From positions 1 to 35,126 of IMG/VR virus record IMGVR_UViG_3300015360_000114: a stretch of DNA of 35,126 nt; one strand, written 5' to 3'. Shown here one piece after another: positions 1 to 35,126 of the stretch (position 1 is the first letter of the stretch; each line of letters begins with the position of its first letter). The notes beneath the pieces are model-generated. The model had not been told where the DNA came from and made no database searches. It worked only from the letters and a program-made list of their open reading frames with translations. Origin of the DNA: a virus. The translations under genes were made by a program, and so were the position numbers.

Positions 1-158
1 AGTTGCTCTAGTTGCTGTAGTTGCTGTATTCGCTCTAGTTGCTGTAGTTGCTGTAGTTGCTGTAGTTGCTGTATTCGCTCTAGTTGCTGTAGTTGCTGTA
101 GTTGCTGTAGTTGCTGTATTCGCTCTAGTTGCTGTAGTTGCTGTAGTTTCTCTATCTC
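1..158. repeat. 9-bp tandem repeat (left copy of the circular overlap)
   Basis: Seventeen 9-bp units, mostly agttgctgt with attcgctct at every fifth place, making a 45-bp higher-order period (attcgctct plus four agttgctgt). Read on the minus strand in the methyltransferase frame they encode Gln-Gln-Leu and Glu-Arg-Ile triplets. The same tract, one 45-bp unit shorter, ends the window at 35014-35126, so the two ends are the same place on a circular map. Confidence 0.95.
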
Positions 159-680
159 ACCAGCACGTTTATCACTATGCAAAAACTTAACCCTGCTTCT
201 CAATAGAAGTCTTTTGTCGTAGATTGAATATCCATCCTTAAATTTATCCATGCCAAACAATTCTTTAGCTGTGCTGTCAAAATCATTAAAAACAACAGCG
301 TTATGCATTGATCTCTTATGATTCTCAATATCTTTTCCGAAAATATAAGATTTTCCATTGTTACCAAAGGACCAGATTATTTTTACATACTGATCATTTT
401 CTTTTGCCCGATTAAACTCTTCCCTAGATATAAACTTTGGCTTGAAGTTTTCGTATGAATACTTTCCCGCCATTGCGTCTTTTATTAATTCACAAATGCC
501 TGGCTTGATCTCATTGAAGTGAAAGTTCTTATAATCTTTTCTTCTGTGCATTAGCATGAAATGAGATATTGAGAATCCCCCACCAAAAACATCGTAGAAG
601 TTATCAGCAGCGGGGAATGCTCGGCAAACCTTTTCCGCTATTGAACTCTTTGATCCCATGTATGGAATACCGTAGTTCAT
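1..680 (-). CDS. Dam-type DNA adenine methyltransferase, N-terminal part (split by window ends)
   Basis: N-terminal 226 codons of a D12-class N6-adenine methyltransferase that would methylate adenine in phage or host DNA. The protein starts MNYGIPYMGSKSSIAEK and has the SAM-binding DVFGGGFS motif near residue 40. After about 180 residues it enters a Leu/Gln-rich tract of LQQ and ERI triplets encoded by the 9-bp repeat, then runs off the window and resumes at 35126, where the catalytic DPPY motif lies. Joined across the repeat the protein would be about 327 or 342 aa, depending on how many 45-bp units are real. The start codon overlaps the stop of the ParB-like gene (ATGA). Motif order and the fold-back repeat fit Dam-like phage methylases; the target site is unknown. 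Confidence 0.88.
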   Translation of the reverse strand, partial: MNYGIPYMGSKSSIAEKVCRAFPAADNFYDVFGGGFSISHFMLMHRRKDYKNFHFNEIKPGICELIKDAMAGKYSYENFKPKFISREEFNRAKENDQYVKIIWSFGNNGKSYIFGKDIENHKRSMHNAVVFNDFDSTAKELFGMDKFKDGYSIYDKRLLLRSRVKFLHSDKRAGEIEKLQQLQQLERIQQLQQLQQLQQLERIQQLQQLQQLQQLERIQQLQQLEQ

Positions 681-1213
681 TTTACCCTAACGATATAACC
701 ACGACTTACTAGATCATCGTGTATATCTCGCAGCTCCATATCGTTTGGAAATATAACCTCTAGAACGTGCTTTTCTTCTTCTTCTTTATTTAATTCATCT
801 AGGGTTACTGGTTCGATATCTAAACTAAAGTTCTTTATACCAAGTAGTTCGATATCAAAAGCTGGGTCAAAGTCTGCGATATCGTTATTAATCTGCCCTA
901 GGTCTAGTGCGCTCCATGATGCGACTGCATTATCTGCTTGTAGATCTGCATATTCCTGCTGCGTTGAATCATAGTCTTGGAAGTTAACCGGAACTTCTGC
1001 CCAGCCGTTTGCGATTGCTGCGGCTAGTCTTCCGTGGCCGCTCGTGATAAAGCCTGTCTGTTTTGATACTTTAATCGGATAGCGCCATCCTTGATAGTTG
1101 AGTATTTTAGCCAGGCGCTCTATTTGTTCTTTGGGGTGTGAGTTCGCGTTATTTGGATGCGGATTTAGTTCTTGAACTGAAACTAATTTATCGAACAAGC
1201 AATTAATTTTCAT
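677..1213 (-). CDS. ParB/Srx-like domain protein
   Basis: 178 aa. The N-terminal half matches the ParB-like nuclease (ParB/sulfiredoxin) fold as seen in phages: a proline-rich NPHPNN segment near residue 17, helix IERLAKIL, and the signature SGHGRLAAA at residues 58-66 (GHGR is the usual nucleotide-binding core). Phage copies of this family often sit next to DNA methyltransferases and terminase genes, as here, and many are thought to be DNA-modifying or nuclease proteins rather than partition factors. No HTH for parS binding is evident. I chose ATG at 1213, which has GGGGA five bases upstream, over the ATG two codons earlier, which abuts that sequence. Its stop overlaps the methyltransferase start. 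A perfect 8-bp inverted repeat lies 13 bp upstream of this start. Confidence 0.75.
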   Translation of the reverse strand: MKINCLFDKLVSVQELNPHPNNANSHPKEQIERLAKILNYQGWRYPIKVSKQTGFITSGHGRLAAAIANGWAEVPVNFQDYDSTQQEYADLQADNAVASWSALDLGQINNDIADFDPAFDIELLGIKNFSLDIEPVTLDELNKEEEEKHVLEVIFPNDMELRDIHDDLVSRGYIVRVK

Positions 1214-1225
1214 TATCATCCCCTG

Positions 1226-4275: not shown

Positions 4276-4718
4276 AGCCTCCCCCTCAAATACTCGTCGA
4301 TCTTGGCCAAGGCTTCGCGGGCTATTTCTGACTGTTGATTATAAGATGGCTCGCGCTCAAATGTTGTAATGCTAATGTTTACGATCTTATCCAAGGCATC
4401 TCTCGCCATTGCAAGCTGCTCCTCAACCTTCCGCTCTGCAAGATACCTATCGCCAGCGGCGTCCATTCTTTTAATTCGTTCCTCGTGCTCCTGCAAATCG
4501 TCGGTCGGCACTACATGTATATGCTGATCACTCATCTCTTCCCCCTCCAAGCGCGCAGCATTAGACGCAGCCTCCGCCGCGTCCAACTTCACCCTCGCAT
4601 CTTCTTCATCAGCCCACGCAGCAGCACATGCATTGCCCAAAGCAATGGCTGCATCATACGCTACACCCCACGCCGCCTCTGCCTCCTCCAGCCTCATTTC
4701 AAGTTCTGCTTTGTTCAT
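4272..4718 (-). CDS. Ala/Glu-rich coiled-coil protein, possible in-frame fusion
   Basis: 148 aa. Residues 1-60 are an Ala-rich helix (MNKAELEMRLEEAEAAWG and onward), nearly identical at its start to the gene at 5422. At residue 61 the sequence EGEEMSDQ is encoded by DNA containing GGAGGGGGAAGAGATG, a ribosome binding site and ATG (4535) inside the frame. An 87-aa second product (MSDQHIHVVPTDDLQEHEER onward) could therefore start there, or two genes have fused. The second part is an acidic-basic coiled coil. The ribosome binding site for the main start is GGGGGAGAG, shared with several neighbours. Function unknown. Confidence 0.6.
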   Translation of the reverse strand: MNKAELEMRLEEAEAAWGVAYDAAIALGNACAAAWADEEDARVKLDAAEAASNAARLEGEEMSDQHIHVVPTDDLQEHEERIKRMDAAGDRYLAERKVEEQLAMARDALDKIVNISITTFEREPSYNQQSEIAREALAKIDEYLRGRL

Positions 4719-4725
4719 CTCTCCC
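4652..4725. repeat. 74-bp direct repeat, copy 1
   Basis: Identical over 74 bp to 5529-5602. It covers the gene-start region (ribosome binding site plus the first 22 or so codons) of two Ala-rich genes, so the 5' ends of 4272-4718 and 5422-5595 are a recent duplication or recombination product. Confidence 0.95.
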
Positions 4726-5158
4726 CCTCATGCCTGGATCCCTTAAGCACAAAACAGGCAATGTGTTGACCGATGCCTTTTCCTGGTTTCCCATCCTCGG
4801 TAGCGCACCATTTTATATCTCCTAGGTTTCTGATCTCAGAAGTGTGTTTAATTAGAAGCAGTATCCACTTAGGAACGGGGTAAACTAGAACCACGTTGTT
4901 TCCTTTGGCCTGTTCCGCTAATGCTTTGCGAACCCACGCGGTCGGGCCTTTCTTTTTGCCATCCATGATAATGGAACCAAAAGGAGGGTTAACATAATTT
5001 GCTTTACCCCAATCCATAGATAGGCCATCGAAGCCATTGGGCAAAGGATACGGGCAAGGATCGAAGTCAAAGTTAAATTCATTTGTAAGCGTCTCCATTA
5101 ATTCAGGCGGTGTTAGCCAGTAATGTTTTCCGTCTTTCGCTCCATTAATAAAGCTCAT
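4715..5158 (-). CDS. Phage DNA N6-adenine methyltransferase (second MTase)
   Basis: 147 aa, matching the phage DNA N-6-adenine-methyltransferase family (PF05869-like): WLTPPELMETL at 14-24, FDFDPCPYP at 30-38, and the catalytic NPPF at 57-60 (YVNPPFG), then VVLVYPVPKW near 105 and a conserved IACFVLKG end. Members modify adenine in phage DNA, commonly to evade restriction. This is a different family from the Dam-type enzyme spanning the window ends. It is at the short end for the family but all motifs are present. Stop and start overlap its neighbours (ATGA), and its C-terminal EGER is encoded by the next gene's ribosome binding site. Confidence 0.88.
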   Translation of the reverse strand: MSFINGAKDGKHYWLTPPELMETLTNEFNFDFDPCPYPLPNGFDGLSMDWGKANYVNPPFGSIIMDGKKKGPTAWVRKALAEQAKGNNVVLVYPVPKWILLLIKHTSEIRNLGDIKWCATEDGKPGKGIGQHIACFVLKGSRHEGER

Positions 5159-5406
5159 CTCTCCCCCTCGTTCTCACCAAAGATTTGCTTCCATAACCGC
5201 TTTGCCGAACCGGTTCTGGGAACAAGCACTACCTTCGAAAAGTCTCTTCCGCATTCGTGAATTTTACTTTGCAATCCCGCGCTATCCTTTAAAAGAACCG
5301 GCACGTTAGTTGGGAAGTCGTTTTGGCATTTGGGGCAATGGTAATTTACTACCAGCAGCTTGTGTCGTTCGATCCATTCGTCCAAATTTACTTCAGGGTA
5401 GATCAT
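5155..5406 (-). CDS. Hypothetical zinc-ribbon-like protein
   Basis: 83 aa. It has CPKC at residues 24-27 and one later Cys (HECGRDF near 52), suggesting a partial zinc-binding knuckle. It starts MIYPEVNLDEWIERHK and ends ENEGER, the last residues being encoded by the GAGGGGGAGAGATGA junction that starts the methyltransferase. No known function. Confidence 0.6.
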   Translation of the reverse strand: MIYPEVNLDEWIERHKLLVVNYHCPKCQNDFPTNVPVLLKDSAGLQSKIHECGRDFSKVVLVPRTGSAKRLWKQIFGENEGER

Positions 5407-5421
5407 TTTTACACTCGTCGT

Positions 5422-5595
5422 TCATCGTTTCCCAATCCGCCTCCGCCAGGCCAGAATCAACGCATCCCATTTCGCCATCGCATCCCGCTCATCAGACCAC
5501 GCAGACTCCGTACCCGCAAAGCGCGCTACATCATACGCTACACCCCACGCCGCCTCTGCCTCCTCCAGCCTCATTTCAAGTTCTGCTTTGTTCAT
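5422..5595 (-). CDS. Short Ala-rich paralogue of the 4272-4718 gene
   Basis: 57 aa. The first 22 residues (MNKAELEMRLEEAEAAWGVA) repeat the start of the gene at 4272-4718, and the DNA is identical for 74 bp. It then diverges into RFAGTESAWSDERDAMAKW and a basic IGKR end. ATG 5595 is used rather than the GTG three codons earlier. Just upstream a nine-codon mini-ORF (MSNKREWER) ends at this start, and looks like the scar of a joined gene. Probably a truncated or rearranged duplicate. Confidence 0.5.
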   Translation of the reverse strand: MNKAELEMRLEEAEAAWGVAYDVARFAGTESAWSDERDAMAKWDALILAWRRRIGKR

Positions 5596-5602
5596 CTCTC
5601 CC
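5529..5602. repeat. 74-bp direct repeat, copy 2
   Basis: Identical to 4652-4725; see that entry. The identity breaks within the poly-purine ribosome binding site (GGGGGAGAG in copy 1, GTGGGAGAG here). Confidence 0.95.
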
Positions 5603-5617
5603 ACTCACGCTTGTTGC

Positions 5618-7685: not shown

Positions 7686-7961
7686 TTAATTAATTTTAAC
7701 GCCTTTTAATTGATTAATTATCTCTGACGCATACTTATCGGATATTTTCTCAGACTTAATTGTTTCTTGAGAAGGAATCATTTCATAGCGAAAATCATCA
7801 CGCTTGGCATTCCATAAAAAAGCGAACTCATCAAGGGATAGGTTTTTATCTTTTAACCAACTAAATTCTTCTGGGGAAAAAGTTACAGTGTTTTCTTTAA
7901 ATGGTGCGGGAATTCCAATATGAAATAATAACCCTGCCTTACTCTTATAAGTTCTATTCAT
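7686..7961 (-). CDS. Hypothetical protein
   Basis: 91 aa. It has a Phe-rich middle (FSPEEFSWLKDKNLSLDEFAFLWNAKRDDFRYEM) and a Lys/Glu-rich C-terminus. It is the first gene after the 700-bp noncoding region, and no good ribosome binding site precedes ATG 7961. Function unknown. Confidence 0.5.
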   Translation of the reverse strand: MNRTYKSKAGLLFHIGIPAPFKENTVTFSPEEFSWLKDKNLSLDEFAFLWNAKRDDFRYEMIPSQETIKSEKISDKYASEIINQLKGVKIN

Positions 7962-8089
7962 AGTTATTTATTCTAATTCAAAGAACTGAGTTCCATCTTT
8001 CTCAGTAATCCTAGTTATGAATTATTTGTTTTCTCTACTCAGGATCTTTAGATCAATACTTGGTAATCTTTTGAGTTCTGTTTTTTTTT

Positions 8090-8125
8090 AGTTCAGAGAT
8101 CATACTCCAGTTCAGAGATTATAAT
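8090..8125 (+). promoter_or_regulatory. Two direct repeats overlapping a TATAAT box
   Basis: AGTTCAGAGAT occurs at 8090-8100 and 8109-8119, 19 bp apart (near two helical turns), and is extended to 14 of 15 matching bases. The second copy runs directly into TATAAT at 8120-8125, a perfect -10 hexamer. No good -35 is present, so an activator or a repressor bound to the repeats is plausible. The -10 is nearly palindromic and could also act leftward. Confidence 0.4.
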
Positions 8126-8155
8126 ACCCTACCGAATTACTTCCTTGAGTGAGCG

Positions 8156-8186
8156 AAGCAGAGCCTAATAAGGCTGCTTTTTATTT
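8156..8186 (+). terminator. Plus-strand intrinsic terminator-like hairpin
   Basis: AAGCAG-ag-CC, loop taataa, GG-CTGCTT, followed by TTTATTT. Eight pairs with a two-base bulge and a U-rich tail. It is oriented to stop plus-strand transcription, opposite to the phage operons. Confidence 0.55.
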
Positions 8187-8507
8187 CTACATAAGACTTC
8201 TTGGTTGAGAGGCTTATAGCTCATTAGTGTGGAGCCTTCCCGTTCTCGCTTAAATCTTGAACCCAGACTATCCCCAGCGTCTTATTGCCAAGTAGATCCC
8301 TGCACCAGTGCCAGTCCGGATTGCTGCAGAAACGTATAATCTAAATGTCCTTGCATCACTTCCTCTCGGTCGCTTTGCTTTCACCTGTTAATCTCATAGC
8401 GCAATTAGATGCCTATTCGTGTGCTACTACTCTTTCGAGCAGGATACCGCCAAGCAGTACAGCCACCTCATTATCTCTAATGAAGAGATGGCCTTTAGGA
8501 AGTTAAC

Positions 8508-8549
8508 AGCTCCCCCAGTGCGATTTTTTGATTGTTTATGAGCTTTTTT
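8508..8549 (+). terminator. Plus-strand weak terminator-like hairpin
   Basis: AGCTC (8508-8512) pairs with GAGCT (8540-8544) across a long loop and is followed by a run of T. Weak because the stem is five pairs with a 27-base loop. Confidence 0.3.
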
Positions 8550-8624
8550 GATGTATGCTCTTAGACAATCTTTTGTCGCAAACGAAGACTATCTTATCCT
8601 TTTAGATTAATAAAGAGGAATTTT

Positions 8625-8665
8625 AATGCCGGTCGGAAATAAACCTCTGGCCGGTATTTTTATTT
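8625..8665 (+). terminator. Plus-strand terminator-like hairpin overlapping the ERF stop
   Basis: AATGCCGG (8625-8632) pairs with CCGGTATT (8651-8658), one G-T pair, followed by TTTATTT. It overlaps the end of the convergent erf-like gene and is a plausible 3' end for a plus-strand RNA from the region. Confidence 0.5.
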
Positions 8666-9328
8666 GCCGTTTTGAATCCAATCAATCAATTCCTCATACT
8701 GCTGCATATTTAAATATTGGGACGATTTAACCCCCAAAACATGAAGCCTGGCTTTAATTACATCACTGGGCATTCCAACTGATTCACTAATTGCGAATAA
8801 CCGCTTTAGCTGCGCCTCCGTAACGAGTTTAGATGCTTTGCCGGTCACACCATCATACCTATTAATATTTATTGAACCTGGTGGATTGTGGTGGCTAGAT
8901 TGTGGCTCGTGATTCTGATACTCGGTGTCTTTTTCATCCTCGGTTGGAATACAAAATAACTCAAGTAATGCATACTTAAGCGCCGCGCTCATCGCTTTAT
9001 TTGCGCTTTTATCAGATGTATCCATAGCCTCGCCAACGGTTGAAACTTCAACAGAAGATCCATCCTCGGCGTAAAACGTGTAAAGCATCTTTAAAACTGT
9101 AATAGTTAACGCACCGCCTGATTTTGATTGTCTTTCTTCCCGAGTTATTTCTAAAACCTTGGGAGTAAAAAAAACGCCATGCTCAGATAATAAACCTTGT
9201 AACGCCGAGGTTAAATCATCAATGCCTCGAAATTTATAGTTGATCCCTGCGCCTTGGCGGTTTTTCTCAACCGCGCCGACCTTGCACATTATTTTTGGTA
9301 TCTGTTTATAAATTAATCCTTCACTCAT
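8660..9328 (-). CDS. erf: ERF-family single-strand annealing protein
   Basis: 222 aa. It matches the ERF superfamily of phage recombinases, which anneal complementary single strands. Residues about 27-55 carry INYKFRGIDDLTSALQGLL, then HGVFFTPKV, and the hallmark VGEAMDTSDKSANKAMSAALKYALLE run near 100-125, followed by FCIPT. The C-terminal region after 150 is a linker and a small helical part with SVGMPSDVI. It probably works with the 3'-5' exonuclease, RusA-like resolvase and HNH protein nearby in recombination-dependent replication or repair. ATG 9328 has AGGGG upstream and overlaps the previous stop. Confidence 0.9.
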   Translation of the reverse strand: MSEGLIYKQIPKIMCKVGAVEKNRQGAGINYKFRGIDDLTSALQGLLSEHGVFFTPKVLEITREERQSKSGGALTITVLKMLYTFYAEDGSSVEVSTVGEAMDTSDKSANKAMSAALKYALLELFCIPTEDEKDTEYQNHEPQSSHHNPPGSININRYDGVTGKASKLVTEAQLKRLFAISESVGMPSDVIKARLHVLGVKSSQYLNMQQYEELIDWIQNGK

Positions 9329-10005: not shown

Positions 10006-10230
10006 TTAGTTTTCATTTTCTCTCTTTAGTGCGGACGTAATTAATTTCATGAATCGATCATGCAACAAATCAAATTGAGCATCGCATTCCCGCTTCTCAC
10101 GCTCAGTCATATTGGCGCACTCATCGGAGTGGCGTTCATCGTAGCCGACCGTTGTAGCGTGGATATCATTTACGAGCTTATTTAATACCCACTGTTTCGG
10201 CGAAACTTTTTTACCGTTGTGCTTAATCAT
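10006..10230 (-). CDS. Hypothetical protein
   Basis: 74 aa: MIKHNGKKVSPKQWVLNKLVNDIH, then an acidic-basic helical half (NMTEREKRECDAQFDLLHDRF). ATG 10230 overlaps the stop of the pentapeptide gene (ATGA). Function unknown. Confidence 0.6.
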   Translation of the reverse strand: MIKHNGKKVSPKQWVLNKLVNDIHATTVGYDERHSDECANMTEREKRECDAQFDLLHDRFMKLITSALKRENEN

Positions 10231-10904
10231 TTTATCGCCCGCTCCTTCGCCTCTTCCAATGCCTTAAACGCCTTTATATACTCCAAACGTTTTTTGTTCT
10301 CTTTTTTACCCGCATCCCTCGCCGCGATTTCCGCCGCTTCCACCGCCTCCAACGCAGCATCCCACGCCTCCAACCTCGCGGCAGCCCGCGCCTCCAACGT
10401 ATCATCCGCTTTAGCCTTTTTAATTTCTTCACGTTTTGTCATTTTCATTTTGCATTCCTCCTCATTTTTTTCAGCCAAAATAGTTCCGGAAATATTTACC
10501 CCGTCTAGGTCAACGCCGCTCAGGTCAGCATCAGATAGGTTCGCGTCGCGCAGGTTTGCGCCCAGCAGGTTTGCACCCCGCAGGTTTGCACCCCGCAGGT
10601 CTGCACAACTAAGGTCGGCGCCACGCAGGTTTGCGTCAGTCAGGTCGGCGTCGCTCAGGTTTGCGCCCCGCAGGTACGCGTCGCGCAGGTCGGCACCCGA
10701 TAGGTCTGCACTAGGCAGGCTTGCGCCACTCAGGTACGCGTCGCGCAGGTCGGCATCAGGTAGGTCTGCACAAATAAGGTTTGCGCCCCGCAGGTACGCG
10801 TCGCGCAGGTCTGCGCTAGACAGATCGGCCTTTTTGCCAGCATCATTTTCACTCAAAAACAAAGCGTGTAACTCTAAGATTTTATCCAATTCTAGTTTTT
10901 TCAT
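10227..10904 (-). CDS. Pentapeptide-repeat protein with Ala-rich C-terminal module
   Basis: 225 aa. Residues about 25-140 are some two dozen A(D/N)LxxA pentapeptide repeats (ADLRD AYLRG ANL and variants), which fold as a right-handed quadrilateral beta-helix. Known members such as MfpA and Qnr mimic DNA and bind gyrase; whether this one does is unknown. Residues after about 152 switch to a charged Ala-rich helix (ARLEAWDAALEAVEAAEIAA). Between the parts, the frame contains GAGGAGG eight bases before an ATG at 10448, so a separate 73-aa product is possible and two genes may have fused. ATG 10904 follows the shared leader TTCACACGGAGATAAA. Confidence 0.85.
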   Translation of the reverse strand: MKKLELDKILELHALFLSENDAGKKADLSSADLRDAYLRGANLICADLPDADLRDAYLSGASLPSADLSGADLRDAYLRGANLSDADLTDANLRGADLSCADLRGANLRGANLLGANLRDANLSDADLSGVDLDGVNISGTILAEKNEEECKMKMTKREEIKKAKADDTLEARAAARLEAWDAALEAVEAAEIAARDAGKKENKKRLEYIKAFKALEEAKERAIK

Positions 10905-10909
10905 ATGTT

Positions 10910-10925
10910 TTTATCTCCGTGTGAA
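10910..10925 (-). promoter_or_regulatory. 16-bp leader box, copy 2
   Basis: TTCACACGGAGATAAA on the minus strand, containing the GGAG ribosome binding site of the pentapeptide gene. The same 16 bases occur at 11702-11717 before another gene. Confidence 0.7.
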
Positions 10926-10933
10926 TGGTTTAT

Positions 10934-11461
10934 TTATTCTACGACAGACGAGTCGCCGGATACCCGAGCATTGCCGGATACCCGAGCATAGCCGAGCACA
11001 TGCGCATTGCCGGACACATGAGCATCGCCATACACCTGCGCGTCGCCGGACACCCATGCATAGCCGAGCACGCGAGCATTACCGAACACCTGAGCATTGC
11101 CGGACACGTGAGCATTGCCGAGCACATGCGCATTGCCGGACACATGAGCATCGCTATACACCCGAGCATAGCCGGACACCCATGCATAGCCGAGCACGCG
11201 AGCATTACCGAACACCTGCGCATTGCCCGCCACCCGCGCATCGCCATACACCTGCGCATTGCCGTACACGTGAGCATTTCCATACACCTGCGCATTGTCC
11301 GCAATCCACGCATTGCCTGTGAGGTTAGATTTACTTTCTACCCAGCCTCCACGGTCCCCTGCTTTAACGCCATTTTGTGGAAGGTCTATTAGAGCCTCAA
11401 TGCGGTGGAGCGTAGTTGTTCCACAAATTTTTGTTTCGCTGATTAGTTTGAAATGTTTCAT
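10934..11461 (-). CDS. Left-handed beta-helix (hexapeptide-like repeat) phage protein
   Basis: 175 aa. The N-terminal head (KHFKLISETKICGTTTLHRIEAL, GVKAGDRGGWVES) is followed from about residue 45 by about twenty hexapeptide-like units of the form GNAxVxG/SGDAxVYG. This matches a phage family with a conserved RIEAL/GGWVE head and (D/N)A(R/H/Q)V repeats, predicted to form a left-handed beta-helix. Role unknown. It lies directly upstream of the pentapeptide gene, so two different beta-solenoid proteins are made in tandem. ATG 11461 overlaps the previous stop. The DNA repeats here are codon-level, not CRISPR. Confidence 0.85.
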   Translation of the reverse strand: MKHFKLISETKICGTTTLHRIEALIDLPQNGVKAGDRGGWVESKSNLTGNAWIADNAQVYGNAHVYGNAQVYGDARVAGNAQVFGNARVLGYAWVSGYARVYSDAHVSGNAHVLGNAHVSGNAQVFGNARVLGYAWVSGDAQVYGDAHVSGNAHVLGYARVSGNARVSGDSSVVE

Positions 11462-12996: not shown

Positions 12997-13251
12997 TCAA
13001 ACAATCTTACGCATCTTTTTTACGCCTAATTCATCGACTAATGCATACCCTTTAGCGCGTAAAACAGAATGCAAGTGTGGATATTTTACAAGAAATCTTG
13101 ACCATGATAGGTGCCCTTGTATCGTGTGACAGATCCTGCACATGTGAATCCAATACCTATCCTCGAAGCCCTGTCCGCTGCTTGCTCTTGTGACAATATG
13201 GCAGCGATCTAATTGCTCAAACCATTTTTTACAAGCCACGCATTCCTGCAT
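12997..13251 (-). CDS. HNH-type zinc protein, probable endonuclease
   Basis: 84 aa. Zinc knuckles CVAC (4-7) and CRIC-H (38-42) flank RCHIVTRASSGQGFEDRYWIH, an HNH-like beta-beta-alpha core with the Cys-His pair at 17-18. A C-terminal WSRFLVKYPHL segment is typical of small phage HNH proteins found in recombination regions. It starts 16 bp from the divergent rusA-like gene, with GAGGT about ten bases upstream. Cleavage activity is inferred, not shown. Confidence 0.7.
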   Translation of the reverse strand: MQECVACKKWFEQLDRCHIVTRASSGQGFEDRYWIHMCRICHTIQGHLSWSRFLVKYPHLHSVLRAKGYALVDELGVKKMRKIV

Positions 13252-13267
13252 ATGCTTATATTACCTC

Positions 13268-13750
13268 ATGAGCGAAGCCTTATTAATACAAAACTTTCCC
13301 CTGCCACCGTCGGAAAATGCCCTATTTGCCACCAACTTCAAAACAAAAAGAAGGTTCCCCACAAAGGATTATGGGCTTTATAAAGAGGGTTGCAGACAAT
13401 GGGGGATAGTTAACTCAAAATATTCCGCGCTGTTTCGTAAGATGCAAAAAGAAAACCCAGGTAAAATGGTCAAGGTTGATGTTTATTACGTTTTAAAATA
13501 TGAGAGAATTTTTACTAAAGATGGCAGACCAAAAAGACTAGATGCGTCTAATCGGAATAAAGCATTTCAAGACGAACTATCAAAGTTCCTCAATATAGAC
13601 GATTGCACAATATTTAATCTGGCTTGTGAGAAAGTATCTGGAGAAAAAGAATGTTGCGTGGTGATGATCTCTTTTATTAAGCCAATGACTTCTGTTGATC
13701 TTTTAAATTCTTTTAGTTATTCAAACGATGAGCCGTCAACAATCCAATAA
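13268..13750 (+). CDS. rusA: RusA-family Holliday junction resolvase
   Basis: 160 aa. LPLPPSENALF-like N-terminus (NFPLPPSENALF at 9-20) and the catalytic cluster LDASNRNKAFQDEL (D92, N95, K98, D102) followed by NIDD (111-112), as in RusA. It would resolve four-way junctions during phage recombination. It is the only confident gene on the plus strand. ATG 13268 aligns with family starts; no clear ribosome binding site is present. Its start is divergent from the HNH gene with 16 bp between. Its stop directly abuts the 3' CCA of the tRNA-like gene on the opposite strand. Confidence 0.8.
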   Translation: MSEALLIQNFPLPPSENALFATNFKTKRRFPTKDYGLYKEGCRQWGIVNSKYSALFRKMQKENPGKMVKVDVYYVLKYERIFTKDGRPKRLDASNRNKAFQDELSKFLNIDDCTIFNLACEKVSGEKECCVVMISFIKPMTSVDLLNSFSYSNDEPSTIQ

Positions 13751-13828
13751 TGGATCCCTTGGATGGCGTCGAACCATCATCTCAAACCACTAGGATAGTT
13801 TGCGCTCTACCATTTGAGCTACAAGGGC
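13751..13828 (-). tRNA. tRNA-like gene with enlarged anticodon loop
   Basis: 78 nt with encoded CCA. Acceptor GCCCTTG/CAAGGGA (six of seven pairs, G1-A72 mismatch), D arm GCTC-AAATGGTA-GAGC, T arm GATGG-TTCGACG-CCATC (perfect), four-base variable loop, U at 73. The anticodon stem CAAAC/GTTTG encloses ten bases, TATCCTAGTG, instead of seven. Pairing T-G gives six stem pairs and an eight-base loop ATCCTAGT; pairing one more leaves six. U33 followed by CCU or CCUA is possible, so Arg-CCU or an extended-loop tRNA, or a decayed gene. It overlaps the last codons of the lipoprotein gene. Confidence 0.6.
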
Positions 13829-17247: not shown

Positions 17248-19398
17248 TTACCACTCCCCCGCCCTGTCTTGTATTGCTTTTTGATCTTCTAATTTAATTG
17301 TCACACCATTAGTTGACTTTTGCACCTCTATTAAACTCAATGTTCTTTGTCTGTTAACACTAAATTCAAAATCAAAGCCCGGCAGCTGTTCCTTGCTTAT
17401 CTGATAGGTAGCACTAAGATTAGTCTTATCTATAAAATCATCGCCTAGGTTGATCTCATAAAATGCCCGCCTATCGCCTAAAACGATTGCATACCTATCA
17501 GCCATTTTCTGAGCCTGAACCTTATCATATTGCAAGAGCGAGGCGGAATATTGGCTTGTTACTTGATGTAAATCCCTGGCTATATAATTTGAAGCGTTAA
17601 CAAAAACATTAGGTAATAAAAGATCAACTCGAACCGATGTGCGTTCTTTTTTAAAATAATTAAAAGACACGGTATCGTATAAATCACTATAGTCGTGGTT
17701 ATATGAATAATTGTAATACTCTTCCTCGGTAGCAGAATAACCAACGCCTGGTTGAGGTCCATTTTCTATAAGGCCAAGCTTCATATCTGCGCCAAATTGA
17801 ATAAAAGAAAGCCGCCACATCATAGAAGATAAAATAGGCAGGATGATATCTATGAACTTTGGCAGCTTTGATGCGTCGTGCATCGATGGAATAGCGTAGC
17901 CTAAATCATGAGATGAATCCCCCGCCGTGTCAAATGTTGAAATATCTATGTCTTGCAGCGGGAATGAGGAATCAGATATCGCCTGGTAAAGTAAAGAAAT
18001 AGCCTCGGCTCTTATCCCGCCATTTTCCGATACTAGGCCAACAGGACTTGCGTCTTGAAAAAGATCTATATCCTTACGCCCATAAACCCGAACGTAGATA
18101 TTATCAAAAGCTGGGTCAAATATGGAATGGGTGTAACCTATCGCGGCCTCCCAATTATTTTCCATCAATAACCCATTTGTAGAAACAGCATCGCCGATGG
18201 ATATGTAATCCCTTCCAGGGTGAAGCTGCCACGTTACGCCATCGCGATCTTCTATAATAACCCTCGCGATATCATATCTGGTCAATGTATCGGCAGCGGT
18301 AAATGTTCTCGCGCCAAGAGATGGATGATCTATGTAGTTTGATATTCTATTTACCGCATTAACAACCGTTCTATAAGTAACTCCATTATTTACAATGATT
18401 ACCCAATCGCCAACATTCAAAACTGGAACTGTGGTTAAAAATGTTCTGGTTGCTGTATTTGCCATGGCGTTATCCACCATTTGGAAAATACTTCCTGGAG
18501 TTCCGGTAAATAAAGAATGCGTTAGCCATTTTCTGTTATTACTTGTTGATGCGGCAACATTGTAATCTACATTCACGGGCCTAAACCCATCTACCATTCC
18601 ATGAACTTCTCTAATAAACCATTCTTTACCTAAACCATTTGCATATGCGGCTGGCTCTAATAGCGGGAATGTAGCAACTGTGTATCTAACATGGCTCGCG
18701 CTTGGCCTTGTTTTTAAAAAGTCATATTCACGCGAAAAGAACCTATTATAATCGACAGTAGATATGCTTAAAATATTATCCGAATCAACAAATATATTAG
18801 ACGTAAAGCCTAAGAAAACTTTTAATGATGATGCAAATTTTCCATCTATATAATTAGAAACATATGCAGACACCTCGCTAAAATTGAAAGACGTGTCGTG
18901 TAGTATCTCATTTAATAATCCATCTGCGTTGGAGTATCTAATCACTGCCTGGCTAAGAGGAACAAAACCATATAATGTATCAGATGAACCATTTTGGCTT
19001 TGTGGTAAAGATATCAATCCAGGAAGCCATTCGGCATTATAACTTGTGGAGTCTATTGGATCAGATGGCCCAACAAAATCCTTAGCAGATAGTGTCAATA
19101 AGAATTTAACTGTAACTCCAGCGTAATTATTTAGACCTGGATCGTTTGCGTCGCCGATATAAAGCAGCTTATTTTCTGAATCATAAAAATATGAATTATC
19201 GACAACAGCACTAATACTTGCGGCTTGAGTGTATTCAAGAGAGTTAACTAATGATTCAGAAACACCTAAAACAGGGTAATCCATACGCGCAGACCATATT
19301 TGTTGTGGCGGCACTGGCCCCGGACCCACAAGCGTCCATTGCAATATTCTTCTTCTGGGCTTAATAACAACCTGCCCGAATTTTTCAATCCTATGCAT
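17248..19398 (-). CDS. Putative tail tip / host-contact protein
   Basis: 716 aa, the largest protein after the fibre, tape measure and tube group in this operon, mixed alpha/beta with little repetition. By position (third gene after the tape measure) it should be a distal tail-tip or baseplate-hub protein. Segments such as PVLGVSESLVNSLEYTQA near the start and EWFIREVHGMVDGFRPVNVDYN in the middle are not diagnostic to me. Start overlaps the previous gene by eight bases. Confidence 0.55.
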   Translation of the reverse strand: MHRIEKFGQVVIKPRRRILQWTLVGPGPVPPQQIWSARMDYPVLGVSESLVNSLEYTQAASISAVVDNSYFYDSENKLLYIGDANDPGLNNYAGVTVKFLLTLSAKDFVGPSDPIDSTSYNAEWLPGLISLPQSQNGSSDTLYGFVPLSQAVIRYSNADGLLNEILHDTSFNFSEVSAYVSNYIDGKFASSLKVFLGFTSNIFVDSDNILSISTVDYNRFFSREYDFLKTRPSASHVRYTVATFPLLEPAAYANGLGKEWFIREVHGMVDGFRPVNVDYNVAASTSNNRKWLTHSLFTGTPGSIFQMVDNAMANTATRTFLTTVPVLNVGDWVIIVNNGVTYRTVVNAVNRISNYIDHPSLGARTFTAADTLTRYDIARVIIEDRDGVTWQLHPGRDYISIGDAVSTNGLLMENNWEAAIGYTHSIFDPAFDNIYVRVYGRKDIDLFQDASPVGLVSENGGIRAEAISLLYQAISDSSFPLQDIDISTFDTAGDSSHDLGYAIPSMHDASKLPKFIDIILPILSSMMWRLSFIQFGADMKLGLIENGPQPGVGYSATEEEYYNYSYNHDYSDLYDTVSFNYFKKERTSVRVDLLLPNVFVNASNYIARDLHQVTSQYSASLLQYDKVQAQKMADRYAIVLGDRRAFYEINLGDDFIDKTNLSATYQISKEQLPGFDFEFSVNRQRTLSLIEVQKSTNGVTIKLEDQKAIQDRAGEW

Positions 19399-19885
19399 TA
19401 TATTGCTCCGAACCTAAAATACTTATTTCAAACGGCGTATTATCTCCAGACTTTGCAGACGTATCTAGTCCATATAAATATTGAGGATCGGGATAACCTT
19501 GGCGCATACCGATATATGAGGAATCATTCCCAGTGTATCCGGTTATCCTCAATGTGAGGTTATAGTGTGAATTGTATTTCAAGAATAAATCGTTAAATGA
19601 AAACCCAGCTATTTTGTACGCATGATTTTCGATAAGAAGCATGGATGCTTTTGTATACGAATTAGTGCTTGTTGCGATTAATTTTGTTGGCCCAGATAAG
19701 TCACTCCATAGCTCAAGAGATATATCAGTAAATATGGGGTTATTATAAAAAACCAAACCAACACTGGCCCCGCTAAATATTAAATACTTTCCAAAGGTTT
19801 TTGGCTTGAACTTCTGATACACGGTGGGAATTGCAGCGGCATTGTCTGCTGTTGAAATTGGCTTTACAATCATTCTCCAGCTCAT
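19391..19885 (-). CDS. Putative minor tail protein
   Basis: 164 aa, beta-rich (FKPKTFGKYLIFSGASVGLVF, TLRITGYTGND). ATG 19885 overlaps the stop of the distal-tail-like gene. Assigned to the tail by position only. Confidence 0.5.
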   Translation of the reverse strand: MSWRMIVKPISTADNAAAIPTVYQKFKPKTFGKYLIFSGASVGLVFYNNPIFTDISLELWSDLSGPTKLIATSTNSYTKASMLLIENHAYKIAGFSFNDLFLKYNSHYNLTLRITGYTGNDSSYIGMRQGYPDPQYLYGLDTSAKSGDNTPFEISILGSEQYNA

Positions 19886-34665: not shown

Positions 34666-35126
34666 TACTTGCTCCTTTGTGCTTTCATAGAATGCATTAC
34701 TTTATTATATGCAATGTCGTTTACGTAAACGCATTCCTGATTGTGCGTTGTATTTTCAATTGTTTTTTTAGATAATAGCGATCTTTTTTTAATAGATAAT
34801 ATTTGTTTGAACCTTTTATCGCTTATATTATATTCTGAGATAAACACTGGATGATTTAATTCTGCTGCCCAGTTTAGAAATTTCTTTGTATCAAATGAGC
34901 CTGAGTATTCTGCGGTTCCAGCATAGGGAGGATCGCAGTAGACAACAGAGTTTTCTTTTATTTCTAGTTGCTCATATGATTTATTATAAAATGATAACTT
35001 ATCTAGTCGCTCTAGTTGCTCTAGTTGCTGTAGTTGCTGTATTCGCTCTAGTTGCTGTAGTTGCTGTAGTTGCTGTAGTTGCTGTATTCGCTCTAGTTGC
35101 TGTAGTTGCTGTAGTTTCTCTATCTC
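34665..35126 (-). CDS. Dam-type DNA adenine methyltransferase, C-terminal part (split by window ends)
   Basis: The last 153 codons of the methyltransferase begun at 680. The tract starts with the repeat-encoded QLQQLERIQQL region, then LDKLSFYNKSYEQLEI and the catalytic DPPY at 34928-34939 (VYCDPPYAGTAEYSG). It closes with a C-terminal helix ending KAQRSK at a TAA that overlaps the terS start. The N-terminal part at 1-680 has the SAM-binding motif, so the enzyme is complete only when the ends are joined. Confidence 0.88.
   Translation of the reverse strand, partial: EIEKLQQLQQLERIQQLQQLQQLQQLERIQQLQQLEQLERLDKLSFYNKSYEQLEIKENSVVYCDPPYAGTAEYSGSFDTKKFLNWAAELNHPVFISEYNISDKRFKQILSIKKRSLLSKKTIENTTHNQECVYVNDIAYNKVMHSMKAQRSK
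35005..35112. repeat. 9-bp tandem repeat (right copy of the circular overlap)
   Basis: Twelve 9-bp units (agtcgctct, agttgctct, then agttgctgt with attcgctct every fifth). From 35014 on, the tract matches the start of the window but with one 45-bp unit fewer. Confidence 0.95.

What the first reader, a model, noticed from the sequence alone, without database searches (positions are those of the whole stretch)
7962..8666. Candidate large structured noncoding RNA in the only gene-free region
Seen: 700 bp with no convincing ORF, in a genome that otherwise overlaps its genes. At least eight local hairpins, including a ten-pair bulged stem at 8191-8217 and a long-range GCATC/GATGC at 8353-8412. Several stems have G-T pairs on the plus strand, and three have plus-strand T-tails. 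Known: large ornate RNAs (ROOL, GOLLD) of 500-800 nt occur in phages. Inference: an RNA of about 540 nt from near 8130 to 8665, convergent with the erf-like operon, or a minus-strand RNA.
Basis: partly seen in the sequence, partly recalled or inferred. Interest (0 to 1): 0.78.

Follow-up and report, generated by a model that had tools for sequence, protein, structure and literature searches.

The report
Noncoding phage gap with convergent terminator
A 700-base stretch of this phage genome really has no gene and ends in one of the clearest transcription stop signals in the genome, pointing against the neighbouring genes; it probably makes a noncoding RNA, but nothing found here shows that it is a new giant structured RNA.

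Summary
The gap is real: 7962-8659 is the longest gene-free stretch of a 35 kb phage coded almost wholly on the minus strand, with no coding signal and no protein-family match in any frame. Two elements far exceed chance: a 62-nt stem-loop at 8519-8580 and a 13-bp intrinsic terminator at 8625-8658, with U-tail on the plus strand only, abutting the erf stop codon. A 15-nt tandem repeat (8090, 8109) overlaps a perfect TATAAT. The other hairpins, in the proposed body 8131-8518, fold no better than shuffled sequence on either strand. A longer plus-strand fold, 8030-8518, is unusually well defined (2 of 200 shuffles), but its limits were chosen afterwards and a coding control gave a similar signal. 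No homologue was found, so covariation could not be tested; Rfam, ROOL included, gave nothing. A distant relative has the same layout: a strong plus-strand terminator after its erf operon, with a promoter-like site upstream. Best reading: a convergent plus-strand noncoding transcript of about 150-540 nt, placed like lambda OOP RNA. Transcription itself is inferred. A new large ornate RNA is possible but weakly supported.

The parts
7962..8659 (.). Gene-free interval between erf and the gene 7686-7961
   Evidence: longest gap; no coding signal
8625..8665 (+). Intrinsic terminator: 13-pair stem, 8-nt loop, U-rich tail, overlapping the last bases of erf on the other strand
   Evidence: z -4.84
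8519..8580 (+). 62-nt two-tier stem-loop, -23 kcal/mol
   Evidence: z -7.37; also stable on the minus strand
8581..8624 (+). A/U-rich linker between stem-loop and terminator
   Evidence: sequence, unpaired in fold
8090..8123 (+). Tandem 15-nt repeat AGTTCAGAGATYATA, 19-nt spacing: possible operator
   Evidence: 0 of 300 shuffles; nowhere else in window without 3 mismatches
8120..8125 (+). TATAAT, possible -10 box (start near 8132); -35 poor
   Evidence: sequence; weak matrix score
8041..8351 (+). Possible domain of nested long-range helices 8041-8053/8339-8351, 8057-8067/8284-8294, 8110-8120/8253-8262
   Evidence: suggestive only
8158..8185 (+). Weak terminator-like hairpin with U-tail
   Evidence: z -0.93, not above chance
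8660..9328 (-). erf, Erf-like single-strand annealing protein; convergent neighbour
   Evidence: PHROG 155, PF04404
7686..7961 (-). Unknown 91-aa gene on the other side of the gap

Best explanation
The interval holds a plus-strand noncoding transcription unit that runs toward the minus-strand erf operon and stops at the intrinsic terminator 8625-8665, at the erf stop codon. Its 3' end would be a stem-loop, an A/U-rich linker and a terminator, the anatomy of a bacterial small RNA. It starts either near 8131 (TATAAT under the tandem repeats, about 535 nt) or closer to 8510 (about 150 nt). Most likely action: a convergent antisense transcript that pairs with RNA reading through from erf, or collides with its polymerases, and so limits expression across the erf to 7961 junction; a trans-acting small RNA is the alternative. 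Shown: noncoding gap, terminator, stem-loop, tandem repeat. Inferred: transcription, ends, function.
For: Plus-strand-only terminator with the most stem pairs of all terminator-like sites in the window (z -4.84), useless to any minus-strand gene and with no plus-strand gene before it. Stem-loop 8519-8580 at z -7.37. Tandem repeat over TATAAT. Distant relative G001 repeats the layout: plus-strand terminator of -30 kcal/mol at L037:5124-5176 after its minus-strand erf operon, with TTGACG-19-TATAGT upstream.
Against: No good promoter in the gap by an E. coli matrix, though the host's promoters are unknown. The plus strand is only 43% purine, like the antisense of neighbouring genes. Four larger hairpins in the window, most of them inside genes, have lower energies with T-rich tails. 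No transcript data. The G001 resemblance is in layout, not sequence.
Confidence: 0.5

Rival explanations
1. A large structured plus-strand RNA from about 8030 to 8665, closed by nested long-range helices, that works as a folded molecule in the manner of ornate phage RNAs.
For: Plus-strand fold of 8030-8518 is unusually well defined: ensemble diversity 57 against 118 +- 27, 2 of 200 shuffles as low, lowest against 174 genome windows; minus strand ordinary. Six helices of 9 or more pairs against 2.65 expected (9 of 200). G-U pairs in the long helices fit the plus strand. G018 also has a 700-nt gap with one strand folding at z -4.55.
Against: Limits chosen after seeing the helices; energy ordinary (24 of 200). 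A gene-bearing control stretch gave the same statistic at z -3.4. The body from 8131 on shows nothing. If the TATAAT at 8120 is the promoter, the 5' arms are not in the RNA. No homologue, no Rfam match.
Confidence: 0.15
2. A leftover or untranslated part of the minus-strand operon: erf 3' region and leader of gene 7961, perhaps the remains of lost genes.
For: Minus strand is purine-rich like the neighbouring genes; no minus-strand terminator between erf and 7961. In relative G002 an SSB-like gene follows erf (read by eye), so genes come and go here; erf proteins of relatives are only 18-35% identical.
Against: No family trace in any frame and no codon bias; no reading with UAGG as a four-base codon opens it. 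Leaves the plus-strand terminator, the stem-loop and the tandem repeat unexplained.
Confidence: 0.2
3. A DNA-level control region: replication origin, operator or packaging site, in which the stem-loop and tandem repeats are protein-binding sites or cruciforms.
For: Tandem 15-nt repeat unique in the genome; long stem-loop stable on either strand; lies beside recombination genes; the only large noncoding gap.
Against: Only two repeat copies, no recognised replication initiator in the proteins scanned, no switch of GC skew at the gap. Does not explain a one-sided terminator.
Confidence: 0.15

Closest known systems
lambda OOP RNA and other convergent phage antisense RNAs (aQ, P22 sar)
   Same: Noncoding, opposite in direction to the early genes, ends in an intrinsic terminator at the 3' end of an early gene (PMC5869508, PMC12197685).
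   Different: OOP is 77 nt and overlaps cII by 52 bases; here the overlap with erf is a few bases, the unit may be longer, and neither promoter, transcript nor target is shown.
ROOL (RF03087)
   Same: Possible phage-borne noncoding RNA of about 550-640 nt.
   Different: No model match, no tRNA island, no conservation, most of the fold at chance level.
GOLLD
   Same: Possible large phage noncoding RNA.
   Different: No match in the Rfam scans; GOLLD often exceeds 800 nt and has a universally conserved 3' region (PMC12286853).
Hfq-type trans-acting small RNA (general anatomy)
   Same: Stem-loop, A/U-rich linker and U-tailed terminator at 8519-8665.
   Different: No known family match, target or promoter.

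Membership tests
ROOL | match to the covariance model RF03087 | tested here: not met
   no match at E up to 10. The control genomes held no ROOL either, so sensitivity was not shown
ROOL | often near tRNA islands | tested here: not met
   one tRNA-like gene, 5 kb away
ROOL | covarying multi-stem structure with pseudoknots | not testable with these tools
   no homologues found
GOLLD | match to the Rfam model with its conserved 3' region | tested here: not met
   Rfam-wide scans, gathering and E up to 10; a separate search by accession used a wrong number
OOP-like convergent antisense RNA | intrinsic terminator facing the 3' end of an oppositely transcribed early gene | tested here: met
   8625-8665 plus strand against erf
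OOP-like convergent antisense RNA | promoter for the opposite-strand transcript | tested here: inconclusive
   TATAAT at 8120 with poor -35; best matrix sites rank 92nd or lower in the genome
OOP-like convergent antisense RNA | no protein product | tested here: met
OOP-like convergent antisense RNA | antisense pairing and RNase III cleavage of target mRNA | not testable with these tools
   needs RNA work

The most novel reading that the evidence does not exclude
A previously undescribed class of large (about 600 nt) structured phage RNA beside the recombination operon, carried in strongly diverged forms by several members of this phage group (window 8030-8665 plus strand; G018 L089:6305-6960 minus strand).
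Probability: 0.1. Interest if true: 0.65.

Novelty: new member of a known kind. Interest (0 to 1): 0.27.

Why it matters
If transcribed, it would be a noncoding RNA of a poorly known group of small tailed phages, one of whose distant relatives lies in a Halobacteriovoraceae (predatory bacteria) assembly, and it would suggest that convergent RNAs against recombination operons recur there. If it proved to be a conserved ornate RNA it would add to a very short list. As it stands it is a candidate, not a discovery.

Tried and rejected
1) Rfam scans of window and relatives: nothing at gathering score; the best weak hit (anti-hemB, 20.3 bits against a cut-off of 49.5, at 8592-8664) is read as resemblance to a terminator. 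2) DNA similarity in phages and plasmids: one 32-nt match in MT838310 that lies inside an open reading frame there; rejected as chance. 3) Pattern scans for homologues in IMG/VR and GTDB, including degenerate 24-mers made by back-translating open stretches of the gap: none, nor with neighbouring genes. Sensitivity is limited; homologues near 80% identity could be missed. 4) Hidden gene, also with UAGG read as a four-base codon because of the odd tRNA: no open frame. 5) Energy z-scores of other genome windows reach -3.8, so a z near -2 for the whole gap is weak evidence. 6) G001 L037:3653-4378 looked like a second 700-nt gap but holds short genes; it became a warning control. 7) Short matches to 8530-8552 in AT-rich genomes: low complexity.

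Full report
What was checked. The window is a single viral record of 35,126 bases. Its two ends share a 9-nt repeat array, so it probably closes on itself (inference). Nearly all genes are on the minus strand; a RusA-like gene at about 13190-13750 is the clear exception (PF05866). The interval 7962-8659 lies between erf (8660-9328, PF04404) and an unknown gene (7686-7961). It is the longest gap (698 bp; next 342 bp). Its ORFs are 53 aa or less. Codon-usage scores trained on this phage stay near zero there in all six frames, against 0.2-0.3 in flanking genes. Read-through translations of all six frames match nothing convincing in PHROGs or Pfam. The gap is noncoding as far as can be told.

What exceeds chance. 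First, the terminator-like hairpin at 8625-8658 has 13 pairs followed by TTTATTT on the plus strand. It has the most pairs of all terminator-like sites in the window, z -4.84. With a looser definition it is fifth by energy, behind four larger and less compact hairpins. On the minus strand the stem is followed by AAAATTCC, so it can serve only plus-strand transcripts. Its tail runs over the last bases of erf. Second, the stem-loop 8519-8580 reaches -23 kcal/mol, z -7.37. Third, a 15-nt direct repeat at 8090 and 8109 is not matched in 300 shuffles of the gap and has no other close copy in the window; its second copy overlaps TATAAT at 8120-8125. The -35 is poor and no site in the gap scores well on an E. 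coli promoter matrix, but the host's promoters are unknown.

What does not. Extending the start to 8030 adds three nested long-range helices (8041-8053/8339-8351, 8057-8067/8284-8294, 8110-8120/8253-8262). The plus-strand fold of 8030-8518 then becomes unusually well defined: ensemble diversity 57 against 118 +- 27 (2 of 200 shuffles as low) and lower than 174 windows of this genome, with the minus strand ordinary. Two cautions apply. The limits were chosen after seeing the helices, and the energy itself is unremarkable (24 of 200). A stretch of relative G001 that turned out to hold short genes gave the same statistic at z -3.4. This is a hint, not evidence of an ornate RNA.

Relatives. Terminase relatives were found in IMG/VR (44-67% identity, apart from a set of remote ones) and one in a Halobacteriovoraceae assembly; that one gives the same alignment statistics as IMG/VR record G006, so the two are probably the same contig. 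None holds DNA similar to the gap, nor do 129 genomes of that family or 369 of that phylum. Scans of IMG/VR and GTDB with many short patterns found nothing. The erf proteins of these relatives are only 18-35% identical to this one, so this part of the genome is exchanged or diverges fast. Covariation could not be tested.

Two relatives are informative on layout. G001 (L037) has its strongest terminator, -30 kcal/mol, on the plus strand at 5124-5176, in the gap after its own minus-strand erf operon, with TTGACG-19-TATAGT about 100 nt upstream (rank 7 in that locus): a candidate RNA of about 150 nt with the same orientation and place. G018 (L089) has a 700-nt gap between its plus-strand erf operon and the opposite operon; its minus strand folds with z -4.55 and ends in a terminator some 8 nt before the next gene, which reads as a leader. 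These share arrangement, not sequence.

Interpretation. The best account is a convergent plus-strand noncoding transcript ending at 8665. What it works like: lambda OOP RNA, a short RNA that ends in an intrinsic terminator against the 3' end of an early gene and promotes RNase III cleavage of the paired mRNA (PMC5869508, PMC12197685). Whether it belongs to that kind is open: terminator position met, promoter inconclusive, antisense action untested. On this reading it limits transcription or stability of RNA running from erf into the genes after 7961. Shown: the gap, terminator, stem-loop and repeat. Inferred: that it is transcribed, where it starts, what it does. Against it stand the missing promoter and the pyrimidine-rich plus strand (43% purine, the same as the antisense of neighbouring genes).

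Comparison with ornate RNAs. ROOL and GOLLD are encoded by phages and prophages, often beside tRNA islands, and are defined by covarying structure (PMC12286853). Here no model matches, the only tRNA-like gene is 5 kb away, and no conservation is known. It should not be filed with them.

Noticed in passing
window 13751-13828 (-): tRNA-like gene with an enlarged anticodon loop; ARAGORN reads a four-base anticodon CCTA, which would decode UAGG. It folds as a tRNA and ends in CCA. The phage relatives searched lack it.
   Followed up: partly
window 19385-19400 (-): The only listed gene that ends in TAG followed by G (19391-19885); reading UAGG as one codon would lead into the frame of the next gene, 17248-19398. 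May be chance.
   Followed up: partly
L089:6306-7005 (relative G018): Another 700-nt gene-free region beside erf, minus strand folding at z -4.55, with terminator-like hairpins just before the first gene of the flanking operons, suggesting leaders or antitermination.
   Followed up: partly
L037:4995-5176 (relative G001): Candidate plus-strand small RNA of about 150 nt: TTGACG-19-TATAGT and a -30 kcal/mol terminator, convergent with the erf operon.
   Followed up: partly
L076: A terminase relative (47% identity) lies in a 127-kb contig of a Halobacteriovoraceae assembly, a hint that this phage group includes prophages of predatory bacteria; mis-binning not excluded.
   Followed up: partly
window 4648-4736 and 5525-5613: 89-nt direct repeat, 96% identical, across neighbouring early genes: recent partial duplication.
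   Followed up: no
window 1-203 and 34948-35126: 9-nt tandem repeat array shared by both ends of the record; the contig was probably cut inside the array.
   Followed up: partly
window 10227-11461: Two neighbouring repeat proteins, pentapeptide repeats and a YdcK-like beta-solenoid, with 15-nt and 18-nt DNA periods.
   Followed up: no
window 677-1219 (-): ParB-like/methyltransferase-like gene, 68% identical in relative G002, one of the best conserved genes of the group.
   Followed up: no
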